Positions 15,234 to 63,939 of a stretch of DNA of 64,000 nt are shown here, piece by piece. Every line of letters starts with the position of its first letter. The stretch's first letter is position 1. The notes beneath the pieces were generated by a model. The model ran no database searches. It saw nothing but the letters and a program-made list of their open reading frames with translations, and was not told the DNA's origin. The translations under genes were made by a program, and so were the position numbers. Source of the DNA: a virus; IMG/VR virus record IMGVR_UViG_3300042114_000045, positions 1 through 64,000 of that record; one strand, written 5' to 3'.

Positions 15234-16076
15234 TTATTGTTTATCTACAACAAAACTACCGTAGAAGCCACCAAATCCATAGGATACAACACAACCAGTT
15301 CCTTGTTCGTTTGTATCTTCTATAAACATAAGCATATCTACTAACGAAGACATACCTTGTGTATTACCGTGTAATCCTGTATATGATAATATCTTACCAT
15401 AATGTTCTTTAATATTATCTTTAAATCCGTTATAATAGGTAATAATACTATCTGCCGGAGTAAAAACTTTTTTAAGTGAATCAAATATAGGGTATGAGTA
15501 AACACCGTATGAGTACGTAGTTTTAATATCTTTTATTTCTGTACCCTCACCTTCTTTAGAGAATACACATATAATGTACCCTTCACCAAGTACGGTAGGT
15601 AATCTATACTCTTTTAGCATATCTATGTTACTTTGTTGTAACTTATCTTCAGCTATAACTACGACGTGTTTGCATTTACCGCTGTCTAGTAATTGTTGTG
15701 CTTTATCGAGCGCCCATACACCACTAGACCAACCAGTAGCTATAATATCAACATAACTAATATTGTTATTAATGCTAAGCACGCTAACATATTTGTTAAC
15801 CATATAACTCATATTAGACAGAACGTACTTTTGTGGTGTACTATCAGTCTCAACAGTATACCTTAACTCACTTGTATGGTGTGCTTCACCACCAACGTAT
15901 ATTACACCCACGTCTCCGTCAAGTACTATACTATCTAGAAATTCTCTGCAGTAAGGACTACTAATATTACCAGTTGTAATATGCTCGTTATATTGAACAG
16001 GGGTATATAACCTAAATAGGTTATTATCTACGTCATAGTTGCTTGATAGCATATGCTTATATTTACTTAAAATCAT
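15234..16076 (-). CDS. Thiolase-fold, ketoacyl-synthase-III-like protein (probably catalytically inactive)
   Basis: 280 residues. Residues 105-172 follow the FabH/KAS III nucleophile region: ISYVDIIATGWSSGVWALDK, then LLDSGKCKHVVVIAEDK, then the counterpart of LFGDGAGA (VLGEGYIICVFS, 162-173). Near the C-terminus HGNT (236-239) matches the YGNT motif that carries the catalytic Asn, and SYGFGGFYGSFVV (265-277) matches the final glycine-rich strand. The catalytic Cys position holds Ser (117/118) and the catalytic His appears replaced (YYNGFKDN, 214-221), so it probably lost condensing activity. It is shorter than FabH (about 317). It sits between tail-type genes, so a structural role or acyl/pantetheine binding is possible. 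ATG has AAAGGA upstream. Confidence 0.65.
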   Translation of the reverse strand: MILSKYKHMLSSNYDVDNNLFRLYTPVQYNEHITTGNISSPYCREFLDSIVLDGDVGVIYVGGEAHHTSELRYTVETDSTPQKYVLSNMSYMVNKYVSVLSINNNISYVDIIATGWSSGVWALDKAQQLLDSGKCKHVVVIAEDKLQQSNIDMLKEYRLPTVLGEGYIICVFSKEGEGTEIKDIKTTYSYGVYSYPIFDSLKKVFTPADSIITYYNGFKDNIKEHYGKILSYTGLHGNTQGMSSLVDMLMFIEDTNEQGTGCVVSYGFGGFYGSFVVDKQ

Positions 16077-16085
16077 TTGTTTCCT

Positions 16086-17207
16086 TTATATATACTTATC
16101 GGCTTTTGTAGTATAGATTGGGTATTGTAGAAATCCAATCTCTTTCTCAGAAGATGTAGTAGCATATCCTGGTAATGAAGGAGCAGATACTTTCCATCCA
16201 AGTATGCTATTAAATATCGCACCAAAAAACGATGCTTCTTTTCTTTCTGATTTAAACATAGTCTCTGTTTTATGTATAACATATCTACTTTCAATAGTTT
16301 TTTCGCCGGTAGGCCTAAATAACGCGTAGTAACTTCTTGATATACCTAATCCTTCAGCGTATGCGCTTTTTGAATCTCTTTTAACATATGTACTTGTTGT
16401 ACTGCACGTGTTAACCCTTTTCATGTACACTAGGTATAGATACTTAGATGTAGAATATACACCACTATTACTAGTAGGTGTGTATGATGTTATTGTAGCT
16501 GTACTTGAAGTAACTGGATATAATGCATCAATAGTTGATATACTACCACCAATATGAATTTTACCTACGTTATTACTACCAAAACCAAAAAACTTACTTG
16601 TAGTACCGCCATTAGTAGCTTCTAAGATATCTTGTATATTACTTCGTTGTTGGCTGGCAGACATATTTTGTATAGCTTCAGTAACTGTGTTAAATGATAT
16701 ATTCCCAGAAGTATCAGACGTGCTTGCAGTATTAGCTAACGGTAGTCTAGCATTTTGCGGAACTATTAAAGTACATTCTCCGTGTATATCAAGTATTGGT
16801 CTATTAGAATCAAACGTTAACTTATTTAGTGAATTCTTTATAGTTATACCAAATGATGCAGAACTACTGCTATAAATACTTACTTCAGTAAACACAACTA
16901 CGGTTGGTCTATCACCTACGTATCCTAGGGTGATAACTAAAGTACCATCATTTGTATCAATAGCTTGACCTAGAACAGCACCATAAGACTGAGCAGTGTT
17001 AAACCTCAAAAAACATAAATACACAACATCTGTATGTACTATTGGTACTCTAAATACCTCAGTCTTTAATGTATCACTTGTGAAATTAATAGTTATATTA
17101 TTATTTGTACCATTGATGGTAGTAAAATGAACTAGTGTTGAATAATCAGAAGCACCGTTCATTAATAAATGTCCATGCTTATTTAACGCAAACATTCCAT
17201 ATTGCAT
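16086..17207 (-). CDS. Tail-associated structural protein
   Basis: 373 residues, beta-rich, opening with MQYGMFALNKHGHLLMNG, a style common at the N-terminus of small tail-tip or fibre proteins of phages ('plays as object with default state'). Rich in Ser/Thr/Asn, one membrane-neutral hydrophobic patch near residue 95. An AGGGAGG ribosome binding site lies seven bases before the ATG. It lies between the 1,183-residue protein and the KAS-like protein. The exact role is unknown. Confidence 0.7.
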   Translation of the reverse strand: MQYGMFALNKHGHLLMNGASDYSTLVHFTTINGTNNNITINFTSDTLKTEVFRVPIVHTDVVYLCFLRFNTAQSYGAVLGQAIDTNDGTLVITLGYVGDRPTVVVFTEVSIYSSSSASFGITIKNSLNKLTFDSNRPILDIHGECTLIVPQNARLPLANTASTSDTSGNISFNTVTEAIQNMSASQQRSNIQDILEATNGGTTSKFFGFGSNNVGKIHIGGSISTIDALYPVTSSTATITSYTPTSNSGVYSTSKYLYLVYMKRVNTCSTTSTYVKRDSKSAYAEGLGISRSYYALFRPTGEKTIESRYVIHKTETMFKSERKEASFFGAIFNSILGWKVSAPSLPGYATTSSEKEIGFLQYPIYTTKADKYI

Positions 17208-50801: not shown

Positions 50802-50875
50802 TGGTTCGGATATAGAGAATCGAACTCTAACCTCAGCTTCCCAAAAGCCGTGTGCTACCATAACACTTTATCCAA
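50802..50875 (-). tRNA. tRNA-Pro (UGG)
   Basis: Cloverleaf with acceptor TTGGATA/TATCCGA, anticodon loop TTTGGGA, T-loop TTCGATT and encoded CCA. Last gene of the ten-tRNA minus-strand cluster; spacing to tRNA-Phe is only three bases. Confidence 0.9.
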
Positions 50876-50878
50876 ATA

Positions 50879-50954
50879 TGGTGCTACCAACAGGGATCGA
50901 ACCTGTGACACTAGGATTTTCAATCCTATGCTCTACCATCTGAGCTACAATAGC
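50879..50954 (-). tRNA. tRNA-Phe (GAA)
   Basis: Acceptor GCTATTG/TGGTAGC, D-arm with GATGGTA, anticodon loop TTGAAAA, T-loop TTCGATC and encoded CCA. Confidence 0.92.
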
Positions 50955-50955
50955 A

Positions 50956-51032
50956 TGGTGGAATATATCGGATTCGAACCGATCACCTCTAGCGTGCAAA
51001 GCTAGCGCTCTACCAAAATGAGCTAATACCCC
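50956..51032 (-). tRNA. tRNA-Ala (UGC)
   Basis: Acceptor GGGGTAT/ATATTCC, anticodon stem CTAGC/GCTAG with loop TTTGCAC, T-loop TTCGAAT and encoded CCA. Confidence 0.92.
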
Positions 51033-51042
51033 TTATAAAAAT

Positions 51043-51119
51043 TGGTTGTTCCATAAGGACTTGAACCTTAAACCTCTCGATTATCAACCGAACGCTCTGA
51101 CCAATTGAGCTATGGAACA
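51043..51119 (-). tRNA. tRNA-Ile (GAU)
   Basis: Perfect acceptor TGTTCCA/TGGAACA, anticodon loop TTGATAA, T-loop TTCAAGT, encoded CCA. Purine 34-36 is GAU, so it reads AUU/AUC. Confidence 0.92.
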
Positions 51120-51121
51120 TT

Positions 51122-51197
51122 TGGCACTCCTAATCGGATTCGAACCGATATGAGCTCCTGGAAAGGGAGCCATCCTAAACCATTAGATGATAGGAGC
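51122..51197 (-). tRNA. tRNA-Glu (UUC)
   Basis: Acceptor GCTCCTA/TAGGAGT, discriminator G, D-loop AATGGTTTA, anticodon loop CTTTCCA, T-loop TTCGAAT, encoded CCA. Confidence 0.92.
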
Positions 51198-51199
51198 AT

Positions 51200-51273
51200 T
51201 GGCTCTCTAGGTAGGTATCGAACCTACGACTTCCCTTTAACAGAGGGATGCTTGACCTTCAAGCTACTAGAGA
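51200..51273 (-). tRNA. tRNA-Asn (GUU)
   Basis: Acceptor TCTCTAG/CTAGAGA, anticodon stem TCCCT/AGGGA with loop CTGTTAA, discriminator G typical of Asn, encoded CCA. Confidence 0.9.
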
Positions 51274-51274
51274 A

Positions 51275-51351
51275 TGGGGTAATCGACGAGACTCGAACTC
51301 GCAACATTCAGGATCACAACCTGACGCCTCTACCATTGGGCTACGACTAAC
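51275..51351 (-). tRNA. tRNA-His (GUG)
   Basis: Anticodon loop TTGTGAT, T-loop TTCGAGT, encoded CCA and an extra G at -1 opposite C73, the His identity pair. Position 1 is T facing C72, a mismatch unusual for a functional acceptor. Confidence 0.85.
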
Positions 51352-51358
51352 ATAAATT

Positions 51359-51442
51359 TGGTGCGGAAGGAGAGACTCGAACTCTCACGCCTTTCAGCAC
51401 TGGTTTCTAAGACCAGATTGGCTACCATTACAACACTCCCGC
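51359..51442 (-). tRNA. tRNA-Leu (UAG)
   Basis: Class II tRNA: acceptor GCGGGAG/CTTCCGC, anticodon stem CTGGT/ACCAG with loop CTTAGAA, 13-base variable arm, T-loop TTCGAGT, encoded CCA. Confidence 0.9.
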
Positions 51443-51443
51443 A

Positions 51444-51517
51444 TGGATCGAGGACCAGGGTTCGAACCTGGATTCGCAACTTCAAAGGCTGCTGTCCTAC
51501 CATTAGACGATCCTCGA
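51444..51517 (-). tRNA. tRNA-Gln (UUG)
   Basis: Perfect acceptor TCGAGGA/TCCTCGA, anticodon loop CTTTGAA, T-loop TTCGAAC, encoded CCA, discriminator T. Confidence 0.9.
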
Positions 51518-51520
51518 ATA

Positions 51521-51596
51521 TGGAGCTCAATATCAGAATCGAACTGATTATCTCCTGGTTACAAATCAGGCGCTTCGCCAGCAAAGCTTATCAAGC
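51521..51596 (-). tRNA. tRNA-Thr (UGU)
   Basis: Acceptor GCTTGAT/ATTGAGC, D-arm GCTT/AAGC, anticodon loop TTTGTAA, T-loop TTCGATT, encoded CCA. First tRNA of the cluster, 14 bases after a strong terminator. Confidence 0.88.
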
Positions 51597-61815: not shown

Positions 61816-62037
61816 ATGATAACAATGAACAGAATTAGCACAGCTAAAAAATCAAAGAATGGTACACCAGTTACCTCAAGACTTGGACAAACTACTTACA
61901 CTAAAACTGTAGTAGGTGGAAATGGTATGTACGTATTTGTATACGGAGAAGGTAAAAAGAAAAAATCTGAAACTAGACATATGTCTGAGTCTCAAGCTAA
62001 TACTTATAAAGCACAACTAGAAAAAGCAGGGTACTAG
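61816..62037 (+). CDS. Small basic early protein
   Basis: 73 residues, strongly basic (MITMNRISTAKKSKNGTPVT… GEGKKKKSETRHM). AAGGATTGTAAA precedes the ATG; a second ATG 9 bases later is possible. Probably nucleic-acid-binding. Confidence 0.6.
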   Translation: MITMNRISTAKKSKNGTPVTSRLGQTTYTKTVVGGNGMYVFVYGEGKKKKSETRHMSESQANTYKAQLEKAGY

Positions 62038-62039
62038 TC

Positions 62040-62600
62040 ATGGATATTATACTAGCATTTATTGCAGGTGCAGTGTGGTATGAGTTACTATTCCTGGTAG
62101 TTCTAGGGATAGTGTTTATAGTATCAATAGCTGAAGAAAGTTCTTTCTGGTTAATTGTAGTAACGGCTCTGTACCTACTGATATTTGGACATCCACTTGA
62201 ACTGCTAGAACAATACTGGTATTATGTACCTATGTATATCGTATTAGGATTACTATGGTCTGTGTTTAAACATTCTGTTGTAGCAAAAGAGATAACAGTA
62301 AGTGCGTTTAAAAGATTCTATACAGATAAAATTATACCAGAAGAAGGTACACATCAGTATAACAAAAACAAAGAATATCTTAGTAGGGAAATTAAGGATA
62401 AGCTTGAGTATAGATCAAGTGTTGATGCAAAACTATATTGGGTACTATTATTCCCAATATCTGTAACAGGTTACTTATTTGGAGATATGCTTAAAAATAT
62501 TATCAACAAACTAGGCGTAGTTTATACCAGTATTACTAATAAGATTATTCAATCTCAATTTGATACGATATATCCAACGAAACAAAAAACAACAGTTTAA
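62040..62600 (+). CDS. Early multi-pass membrane protein
   Basis: 186 residues. Membrane segments at about 3-30, 36-55 and 62-76, then a charged helical part and a further hydrophobic segment near 130-150 (VLLFPISVTGYLFGDM). It starts two bases after the previous stop, with a weak site. It may change the host envelope; not recognised. Confidence 0.7.
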   Translation: MDIILAFIAGAVWYELLFLVVLGIVFIVSIAEESSFWLIVVTALYLLIFGHPLELLEQYWYYVPMYIVLGLLWSVFKHSVVAKEITVSAFKRFYTDKIIPEEGTHQYNKNKEYLSREIKDKLEYRSSVDAKLYWVLLFPISVTGYLFGDMLKNIINKLGVVYTSITNKIIQSQFDTIYPTKQKTTV

Positions 62601-62630
62601 AAACTACGGTTGTGGTATGCATACTCCTAC

Positions 62631-62692
62631 TGATTAACTAGACTTGAAGATAAGTCTGACCGGTACCGATCCTATTAAGTTAGGTTTAATCA
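62631..62692 (+). ncRNA. Cloverleaf-like element without tRNA loops
   Basis: Perfect 7-bp closing stem TGATTAA/TTAATCA holding a 6-bp hairpin AGACTT-gaagat-AAGTCT, a GGTACC palindrome and a 4-bp hairpin CCTA-ttaagt-TAGG. It has no D- or T-loop consensus. Possibly a relic or a structured RNA; folded by eye. Confidence 0.4.
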
Positions 62693-62728
62693 ATGGCTCC
62701 TCAGCATTCTCTGAGGACTAGTATATGA

Positions 62729-62809
62729 TACTGCTATACAACCTCTGGAAGCGGAGGATCTTGGAGAGACTGGGATACTGGTTGATGTTCGATTCGTCGT
62801 ATAGTAGTA
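62729..62809 (+). ncRNA. tRNA-like element B, extended acceptor, no CCA
   Basis: Canonical T-arm (TGATG/CGTCG with loop TTCGATT) and a D-like arm CCTC/GAGG with loop TGGAAGCG. The closing stem runs ten bp (with one G-U) instead of seven, and no CCA follows. The anticodon-arm region folds as a 7-bp wobble-rich stem with a 5-base loop AGAGA; with the standard register the loop lacks U33. Confidence 0.5.
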
Positions 62810-62890
62810 CAATGTACTATCTTTAACTGCTCTGGAATTGATCACTGGAGTGTCATGGAGACTTATGAACGTTAAATACGTCATTGTTTA

Positions 62891-62918
62891 TATACCGATG
62901 AAAGCTAAATCGGTATAT
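62891..62918 (+). other. Perfect 10-bp hairpin between tRNA-like elements
   Basis: ATATACCGAT/ATCGGTATAT with a 9-base loop, followed by CTTTTATG. Might be a weak terminator or a processing hairpin for the tRNA-like array. Confidence 0.45.
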
Positions 62919-62924
62919 CTTTTA

Positions 62925-62994
62925 TGTACATTTAGCTCAGTTGGTAGAGCGTCTCGCGAGGTGTCGTTGGTTCGAGTCCAACAATGTACAACCA
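62925..62994 (+). tRNA. tRNA-like element D lacking the anticodon loop
   Basis: Perfect 7-bp acceptor TGTACAT/ATGTACA (8 bp with T-A), D-arm GCTC/GAGC with loop AGTTGGTA, T-arm GTTGG/CCAAC with loop TTCGAGT, discriminator A and encoded CCA. Between D- and T-arm there are only 15 bases (62,951-62,965) against about 23. TCTCG and CGAGG abut as if the 7-base anticodon loop had been removed. It cannot decode in the usual way. Confidence 0.65.
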
Positions 62995-63239
62995 ACATAG
63001 GTTTATATATGCAAAGTCCCGTATGAGCTCTGGCAAAAGTATGAGTAGCTTATGATACTTCGGGTTCGCTGTAAATTCTAGATCGTCTAAAGAAACACAG
63101 TAGCATCCGTACGCTCTGGATGTGAAGCAGTGCTACAGTGCTTAATCTGTAGAAGACATCTCTATATTTTGTAATTGAATAGATGAATAGGTGTGATGGT
63201 AACGAGCACCTGTAAAATAAATATCGTGCCACCTTATAT

Positions 63240-63363
63240 ATGATGGTCTGGCGAAATTGGGAAACGCTTGGGTATAGATACTCATTCTGTAGGTTCGACT
63301 CCTACTAGGAATTAATTACTCCGAATATGGTAAGTTTTCAGGTTCAACTCCTGAGTCCATCAT
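63240..63363 (+). tRNA. tRNA-like element G, class II type with long insert
   Basis: Acceptor ATGATGGtC/GtCCATCAT (one mismatch) and D-arm GCG/CGC with loop AAATTGGGAAA are like tRNA-Leu. The T-arm TCAGG/CCTGA with loop TTCAACT is normal. The anticodon arm TGGGTA-TAGA-TACTCA has a 4-base loop. The variable region is about 53 bases and contains another complete T-arm (GTAGG/CCTAC, loop TTCGACT, 63,289-63,305). No CCA. Confidence 0.55.
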
Positions 63364-63370
63364 CATTTTT

Positions 63371-63450
63371 ATATAGCTATAGTTTAACTGGGTAAAACCG
63401 TCGACATTATGGAGGCAAGATATAGGTTCAAATCCTATTAGTTATGTCCA
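63371..63450 (+). tRNA. tRNA-like element H with odd anticodon arm
   Basis: Acceptor ATAGCTA/TAGTTAT (up to 9 bp), D-arm GTTT/AAAC with loop AACTGGGTA, T-arm ATAGG/CCTAT with loop TTCAAAT, CCA at 63,448-63,450. Length is standard. In the standard register the anticodon stem GTCGA/GAGGC has tandem G-A mismatches, the loop is CATTATG with A instead of U at 33, and 34-36 would be UUA (stop codon UAA). Confidence 0.55.
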
Positions 63451-63572
63451 GAAGATAGAAAGATGCATTAGGTTGTGTAGAGTCTGCGGAAGCCAGAGTG
63501 TCTGGTAGTCGAATGCATAGGCTGACTCATTGGATTAATTCCAGGCAAGTTCGATTCTTGTCATCTTCACCA
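63451..63572 (+). tRNA. tRNA-like element I with about 45-base insert
   Basis: Begins at once after the CCA of H. Acceptor GAAGATA/CATCTTC (A-C mismatch at 7:66), T-arm GCAAG/CTTGT with loop TTCGATT, discriminator A, encoded CCA. 122 bases in total. The inner part has a 7-bp stem (63,463-63,469 with 63,512-63,518) and a CCAGA-GTG-TCTGG triloop hairpin; no normal anticodon arm is found. Confidence 0.5.
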
Positions 63573-63578
63573 ATATAC

Positions 63579-63664
63579 GCAAGGATATAGTCACTGACAC
63601 ATATTGAAAACATAGGGCGTACAGCTACGTTCCAGAGTAAGTTTGAATCTTACACCTTGCTCCA
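63579..63664 (+). tRNA. tRNA-like element J
   Basis: Acceptor GCAAGG/CCTTGC (A-A mismatch at 7:66), T-arm GTAAG/CTTAC with loop TTTGAAT, T discriminator, encoded CCA. No D-loop GG. The middle offers GCGTA-CAGC-TACGT (4-base loop) where an anticodon or variable arm would be; a 7-base loop with U33 cannot be formed convincingly. Its 3' end is repeated at 63,926-63,939. Confidence 0.5.
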
Positions 63665-63939
63665 AATCTAACTTAAAGGAATATAAATGAAGTATCTACT
63701 TATACTAGCTATTATACTAATCCTATCTGGTTGCACAGAAAAAAAGATAGTGCATGTAGACCCAACAACAATAAAGTACCCTCAAATGCCAGAGTTAAAG
63801 ATTGTATGTGATAAACGTGGATACGCTTACTACAAACAATATGTATATACTGAAACATATATATATACTCCGATACTTAGGAACTATGATTCAACATATC
63901 AATTACTATGCAAAGATCTATAATGACACCTTGCTCCAA
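63652..63939 (+). repeat. 14-bp direct repeat flanking the lipoprotein gene
   Basis: ACACCTTGCTCCAA occurs at 63,652-63,665 (3' end of element J with its CCA) and at 63,926-63,939, just after the lipoprotein stop codon. Duplicated tRNA 3' ends are a hallmark of insertion next to tRNA genes. Confidence 0.6.
63687..63923 (+). CDS. Small lipoprotein
   Basis: 78 residues. Signal MKYLLILAIILILSGC with lipobox LSGC (Cys16), then a Tyr-rich mature part with Cys near residues 41 and 75. AAAGGAATATAA before the ATG. Small phage lipoproteins often block receptors or act as outer spanins; with no partner visible here, superinfection exclusion is the more likely guess. Confidence 0.7.
   Translation: MKYLLILAIILILSGCTEKKIVHVDPTTIKYPQMPELKIVCDKRGYAYYKQYVYTETYIYTPILRNYDSTYQLLCKDL

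What the first reader, a model, noticed from the sequence alone, without database searches (positions are those of the whole stretch)
62601..63665. Array of tRNA-like elements with intact T-arms and acceptors but defective anticodon arms
Seen: at least five plus-strand elements (62,925; 63,240; 63,371; 63,451; 63,579, perhaps also 62,729) have a standard T-arm and matching acceptor ends, four with encoded CCA, yet none has a normal seven-base anticodon loop with U33. One (62,925-62,994) lacks the loop completely; others have four-base loops, tandem G-A pairs or long inserts, one carrying a second T-arm. The ten minus-strand tRNAs 11 kb away are all canonical, so this is not general decay in the genome. 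Known: EF-Tu, RNase P and many aaRS recognise mainly acceptor and T-arm. Inference: they may be non-decoding RNAs, such as decoys for tRNA-acting enzymes or nucleases, amino-acid donors outside translation, or relics resistant to anticodon nucleases.
Basis: partly seen in the sequence, partly recalled or inferred. Interest (0 to 1): 0.85.

Follow-up and report, generated by a model that had tools for sequence, protein, structure and literature searches.

The report
Phage tRNA-like array lacking anticodon arms
A 123-kb phage carries a row of five tRNA-shaped genes that cannot read codons; they are most likely non-decoding tRNA bodies, and chasing them uncovered a small, widespread, probably spliced insert inside many phage tRNA genes, at least one of them in this genome.

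Summary
Five plus-strand elements (62,926-63,664) keep 6-7 of 7 acceptor pairs and 5/5 T-stem pairs; none has a canonical anticodon arm, and no single excision convincingly restores one. Four T-arm/acceptor/CCA elements occur here, against none in 2,000 shuffles.

The cause is less clear. A relative (G001) has a different odd array after the homologous gene, so the content turns over. I favour non-decoding tRNA bodies, mostly relics, over functional mimics; function is untested.

Outside the window, one clear (80,690, Ile-UAU) and one weaker tRNA of this genome carry a ~50-nt insert in the anticodon stem. The family (hairpin + CWGCAA) recurs in many phages: excision restores a perfect anticodon arm in 65 of 95 viral cases (shuffles 1.5%) and in 29 of 49 from bacterial contigs (0.7%), and its hairpin covaries. 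I found no Rfam family for it. Introns in Lak-phage tRNAs were published in 2019, but my model has no hit inside Lak tRNAs. The genome also encodes RtcB, RlaP, an RNA ligase, a CCA-adding-type enzyme and a tmRNA. Splicing is not shown.

The parts
62926..62994 (+). E1: tRNA body with perfect acceptor, D- and T-arms; anticodon stem TCTCG|CGAGG (62952-62961) with no loop
   Evidence: RF00005 55.6 bits
63242..63365 (+). E3: class II-like tRNA-like element; anticodon hairpin with 6-nt loop, ~53 extra nt with a second T-arm-like hairpin, 3' end TCA
63372..63450 (+). E4: tRNA-like element with CCA; anticodon arm 3/5 paired (tandem G-A), no U33
   Evidence: ARAGORN tRNA-???; RF00005 42.7 bits
63451..63572 (+). 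E5: T-arm + acceptor (6/7) + ACCA around ~87 nt without recognisable D or anticodon arm
63579..63664 (+). E6: T-arm + acceptor (6/7) + TCCA, interior without canonical D or anticodon arm
62726..62811 (+). weak sixth candidate: long terminal helix with a T-arm-like GATG-TTCGATT-CGTC; not supported by any model
   Evidence: read from sequence; no hit
61816..62037 (+). 73-aa gene whose homologue also precedes the odd tRNA array of relative G001 (synteny marker)
   Evidence: tblastn 37.5% over 32 aa, E 7e-5
50802..51596 (-). ten canonical tRNA genes (contrast set)

Best explanation
The array is a fast-turnover phage tRNA locus made of non-decoding tRNA bodies. Shown: these genes keep the acceptor/T half and lack any canonical anticodon arm. 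Inferred: they descend from ordinary phage tRNA genes whose anticodon arms were lost or rearranged; transcripts would still be trimmed by RNase P and 3'-end enzymes and completed by the phage's own CCA-adding-type enzyme; because they cannot read codons they persist mainly as relics, with at most an incidental role as tRNA mimics. In the same genome a second, separate cause of odd tRNAs operates: mini-introns in the anticodon stem (80,690-80,814, a restored Ile-UAU; 73,040-73,166, weaker).
For: No canonical arm even with any single excision. No intron-model hit above background in the array. Position conserved but content not: G001 has another odd array after the homologous gene, matching only in short stretches. 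Lesions are not confined to the anticodon arm: G001's third element lacks a D-loop; 80,514 and 80,930 have odd T-loops. Folding energies of the five are unremarkable, z -0.4 to -1.6. Short-armed tRNA bodies recur sporadically across viral contigs (30 distinct with good acceptors). An enzyme matching the polyA-polymerase/CCA-adding head family is encoded at G000 90,427-91,671.
Against: E1 scores as well as functional tRNAs of the canonical cluster despite its lost loop, and T-stems are 25/25 paired, which looks like retained selection (though detection required T-arm and acceptor). Keeping ~1.1 kb of DNA with no working tRNA is costly for a phage, and G001 keeps an array at the same place.
Confidence: 0.45

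Rival explanations
1. Functional non-decoding tRNA mimics: charged or uncharged tRNA bodies that titrate tRNA-acting enzymes (EF-Tu, aaRS, RNase P, host tRNA nucleases) or serve as amino-acid donors outside translation.
For: Acceptor and T-stems preserved in all five; E1 at 55.6 bits; CCA encoded in E4, E5 and E6, one nt out of register in E1; array position conserved in G001; precedent of a non-translating pseudo-tRNA with a phenotype in Bacillus cereus (PMC3399842).
Against: No homologous element found in any relative; no covariation data; detection bias favours intact T-arms and acceptors; D- and T-loop lesions also occur in the same set of genes.
Confidence: 0.3
2. Precursor tRNAs repaired at RNA level: the elements become ordinary tRNAs after unusual processing (further intron types, trans-splicing) by the phage's RtcB, RlaP and RNA ligase.
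For: The genome encodes RtcB, RlaP and an RNA ligase; intron-like inserts occur in sister clusters; Lak phages have tRNA introns, one of which may itself encode a tRNA (PMC6784885).
Against: E1 and E6 cannot be parsed after any excision, E4 only imperfectly without one, E5 no better than shuffles, E3 weakly; E1 lacks sequence rather than having extra.
Confidence: 0.12
3. Processing punctuation: tRNA-like folds serve only as RNase P / 3'-end cleavage sites that separate flanking transcripts, as in the tRNA-punctuation model of mitochondria.
For: The array sits between two same-strand genes (62,040-62,600 and 63,687-63,923); the acceptor/T half is what RNase P mainly recognises (established knowledge).
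Against: Five consecutive sites would be redundant; no transcript data.
Confidence: 0.08

Closest known systems
Lak megaphage tRNAs with 'enigmatic introns' (PMC6784885)
   Same: Phage tRNA genes with unclassified inserts, one of which may itself encode a tRNA; presence/absence alleles are reported there.
   Different: The model of the CWGCAA mini-intron has no hit inside Lak-A1 or Lak-B1 tRNAs; two Lak-A1 inserts that ARAGORN predicts are 93 and 114 nt; the window elements are not restorable by excision.
Bacillus cereus tRNA-Other pseudo-tRNA (PMC3399842)
   Same: A tRNA-like gene that does not function in translation but may act in regulation.
   Different: It retains a Trp anticodon and lies in a chromosome; E1-E6 lack an anticodon arm and lie in a phage.
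Phage tRNAs that evade tRNA-targeting defences by anticodon-loop changes (PMC10264068; also PMC11555353)
   Same: Phage tRNAs with altered anticodon loops (title and abstract only).
   Different: As I understand those reports the tRNAs still decode; these cannot. The papers themselves were not read here.
Group I introns in bacterial and phage tRNA genes (PMC3984707, abstract)
   Same: Intervening sequence in a tRNA gene.
   Different: Group I introns are larger catalytic RNAs; no Rfam group I hit here; these inserts are mostly 39-57 nt.

Membership tests
canonical decoding tRNA (E1-E6) | acceptor helix and T-arm | tested here: met
   6-7/7 and 5/5 pairs, TT[CT][AG]A loops
canonical decoding tRNA (E1-E6) | 5-bp anticodon stem with 7-nt loop and U33 | tested here: not met
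CWGCAA mini-intron family (E1-E6) | hairpin + CWGCAA insert in the anticodon arm whose excision restores it | tested here: not met
   model R1 with filters off, best 6.7 bits
CWGCAA mini-intron family (G000 80,690-80,814) | hairpin + CWGCAA; excision restores a perfect arm | tested here: met
   CTTCA CTTATAA TGAAG after excision; 43.7 bits, E 2.6e-6, but this sequence was in the model's training set
CWGCAA mini-intron family (G000 73,040-73,166) | hairpin + CWGCAA; excision restores a perfect arm | tested here: inconclusive
   motif and hairpin present and restoration passes, but model score only 18.4 bits, E 0.5
RNA intron (CWGCAA inserts) | removal from the transcript and ligation of exons | not testable with these tools
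   no RNA data
Group I intron | catalytic core | tested here: not met
   no Rfam group I hit
YrlA / bacterial Y RNA | Rfam RF02553 score over cut-off | tested here: not met
   16.6 bits against cut-off 69, spanning two neighbouring elements

The most novel reading that the evidence does not exclude
Many phages, this one included, carry a distinct class of mostly 39-57-nt introns (hairpin followed by CWGCAA) in the 5' side of the tRNA anticodon arm, mostly between nt 28/29 or 29/30, that are removed at RNA level by an unknown route; alongside them this lineage keeps non-decoding tRNA bodies, so that its tRNA pool depends on RNA processing.
Probability: 0.5. Interest if true: 0.88.

Novelty: new variant of a known kind. 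Interest (0 to 1): 0.6.

Why it matters
Phage tRNA lists are usually read as decoding capacity. Here a whole array cannot decode, and a recurrent small insert makes real phage tRNAs look like pseudogenes: Serratia phage BF's insert-bearing tRNA is annotated 'tRNA-Pseudo', while the identical gene in an Erwinia phage is annotated tRNA-Lys. If the insert is spliced, phages (and some bacterial contigs) use a short tRNA intron of a type I did not find described, and cultured phages (BF, Erwinia SNUABM, Pectobacterium CBB) make it testable now.

Tried and rejected
Excess of short-loop hairpins in the array: rejected, 6 against 5.1 in shuffles; the same count for the 80-kb cluster was high (11 against 4.8) but one of five regions tested. 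Y RNA (YrlA): rejected, weak hit spanning two adjacent tRNA-like units. Mini-intron within the array: rejected. Phage-encoded RtcB as a requirement for mini-introns: not supported, 1/25 carriers against 2/20 other large contigs; RNA_ligase 15/25 against 6/20 (p 0.07), union with T4-type ligase 15/25 against 8/20 (p 0.24); the control contigs were picked by other tRNA patterns and may hold unseen introns. Homologues of E4 and 80,434 by D-arm/T-arm pattern: none in viral contigs. Relatives by the RNAP-like and 62,040 proteins: none; named phages near the array: none. Lak introns as the same family: model hits do not fall in Lak tRNAs. The restoration count was made three times: a first version on 56 genes (24 restored), a version with a wrong D-arm offset that returned six rows, and the corrected one reported, in which the motif pattern was also widened (C[ACT]GCAA, C[AT]GCAT or CAGCG) after seeing examples.

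Full report
What the window is. The window is bases 1-64,000 of a 122,779-bp virus record. Its terminase gene shares about 72% DNA identity over ~530 bases with Vibrio N4-like phages, and its protein is 74% identical to that of an IMG/VR relative, here G001. The rest of the record was read as three loci.

The observation. Five plus-strand elements between 62,926 and 63,664 carry a 5-bp T-stem, a TT[CT][AG]A T-loop and a matching acceptor. Infernal recognises E1 (55.6 bits) and E4 (42.7 bits). The pattern T-arm + acceptor + CCA (one nt offset allowed) occurs four times here and never in 2,000 dinucleotide shuffles. The anticodon arms are abnormal: no loop, 6-nt loop, G-A-paired without U33, or unrecognisable. 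A search over every single excision of 10 nt or more found no convincing canonical parse: E1, E6 and the 80,434 gene gave none, E4 only an imperfect unexcised one, E5 one no better than shuffles, E3 a weak one (6 of 60 shuffles as good).

The rest of the genome. Cluster 2 (72.9-73.2 kb) and cluster 3 (80.0-81.0 kb) add a Met and two Ser tRNAs, a tmRNA, a Tyr-like and a Met-like gene with odd T-loops, a gene with a 6-nt anticodon loop, and two genes with long inserts (the T-loops were read from sequence). Pfam finds RlaP, RtcB, a DNA ligase, a polyA-polymerase/CCA-adding-type enzyme, an RNA ligase and a reverse transcriptase between 86 and 100 kb.

Relatives. In G001 the homologue of the 61,816 gene also precedes an odd tRNA array: one gene with a 9-nt anticodon loop, one ordinary, one without a D-loop (loops read from sequence). 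The two arrays share only 15-20-nt matches. G003 has two tRNA-like genes with inserts. The locus is therefore conserved while its content turns over.

The inserts. The two insert-bearing genes share a hairpin followed by GCACWGCAA. On the first 56 genes examined, 24 could be restored by excision against 0.7% of shuffles. The motif pattern was widened after seeing examples, the second scan selected for the motif, and 30 motif genes are not restored under this rule. Among genes without the motif 11 of 51 are also restorable, so restorability is not exclusive to the family. On 38 restored genes the internal hairpin, which played no part in their selection, pairs in 85.5% of cells and covaries far above shuffles; the second helix of that alignment was part of the selection rule and is not independent evidence.

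Bacterial contigs. One scan of the GTDB genome collection with the motif pattern returned 65 stretches, mostly Lachnospiraceae and other Clostridia, many of them metagenome assemblies. Of 49 distinct motif genes 29 restore, against 0.7% of shuffles. Whether these contigs are phage, plasmid or chromosome was not examined.

Cultured phages and annotation. Serratia phage BF and Erwinia phage SNUABM_19 have the same 125-nt gene, identical in tRNA and insert; it is annotated tRNA-Pseudo in BF and tRNA-Lys(ttt) in SNUABM_19. Erwinia phage SNUABM_50 has a 122-nt version whose anticodon stem differs on both sides of the insert with compensating changes (CG+ACA/TGTCG against GG+GCA/TGCCC). With the insert removed, the BF gene matches an annotated, uninterrupted tRNA-Lys of Pseudomonas phage PaBG at 90.3% over positions 6-67. 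Aeromonas phages PX29 and Aeh1 have related inserts, annotated as a two-piece tRNA-Leu and as tRNA-Val, but their loops do not restore U33. Pectobacterium phage CBB carries further ones.

Known or not. No Rfam 15 family other than tRNA covers these inserts in the loci tested. The Lak megaphage paper reported unclassified introns in phage tRNAs in 2019 and stated that none had been reported before to its authors' knowledge; my model found no hit inside Lak-A1 or Lak-B1 tRNAs, and two Lak-A1 inserts are longer. The paper describing Aeh1 reports no group I introns and counts three tRNA pseudogenes for it. My literature search covers only the held open-access library, so novelty of the family is provisional.

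Mechanism. For the array I favour relics with retained tRNA folds (0.45) over functional mimics (0.30); the evidence does not separate them well, because detection itself required T-arm and acceptor. For the mini-introns, removal at RNA level is the natural reading, but the exons could also pair around a retained bulge. Phage RtcB is not a shared requirement; host enzymes or self-splicing remain open.

Noticed in passing
G000 80,690-80,814 (L002:16690-16814): tRNA with a ~50-nt hairpin + CWGCAA insert; excision gives a perfect tRNA-Ile(UAU). Same family in many phages and some Clostridia contigs.
   Followed up: yes
G000 73,040-73,166 (L002:9040-9166): Second insert-bearing tRNA with related hairpin and motif; weaker (model E 0.5).
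   Followed up: partly
G000 80,012-80,341 (L002:16012-16341): Phage-encoded tmRNA (RF00023, 75 bits), tag peptide ANNVNYRSAQFVRVAA.
   Followed up: partly
G000 86,079-92,915 (L003:2079-8915): RNA-repair set: RlaP, RtcB, DNA ligase, polyA-polymerase/CCA-adding-type enzyme, RNA ligase.
   Followed up: partly
G000 98,842-99,621 (L003:14842-15621): Reverse transcriptase (RVT_1) of unknown role.
   Followed up: no
G000 73,676-75,091 (L002:9676-11091): DUF2828/DUF7788 protein directly downstream of the second tRNA cluster, followed by TerC/TerD/TelA genes.
   Followed up: no
L109, L132, L144, L154, L164, L172, L175, L178 (viral contigs): tRNA-like genes sharing an anticodon-side motif near CTCAYGGTGAAGGRCCAAA, not restorable by excision: possibly another conserved non-decoding or intron-bearing family.
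   Followed up: partly
L126 and L123 (viral contigs): Inserts sharing TGCCCGC..AGGGCCGA..GCA..GGTTAT, unlike the CWGCAA family; L126 restores, L123 does not.
   Followed up: no
Lak-A1, L396:8337-8523 and 16003-16167 (minus strand): Two intron-bearing tRNAs predicted by ARAGORN whose inserts contain tRNA-like sequence.
   Followed up: partly
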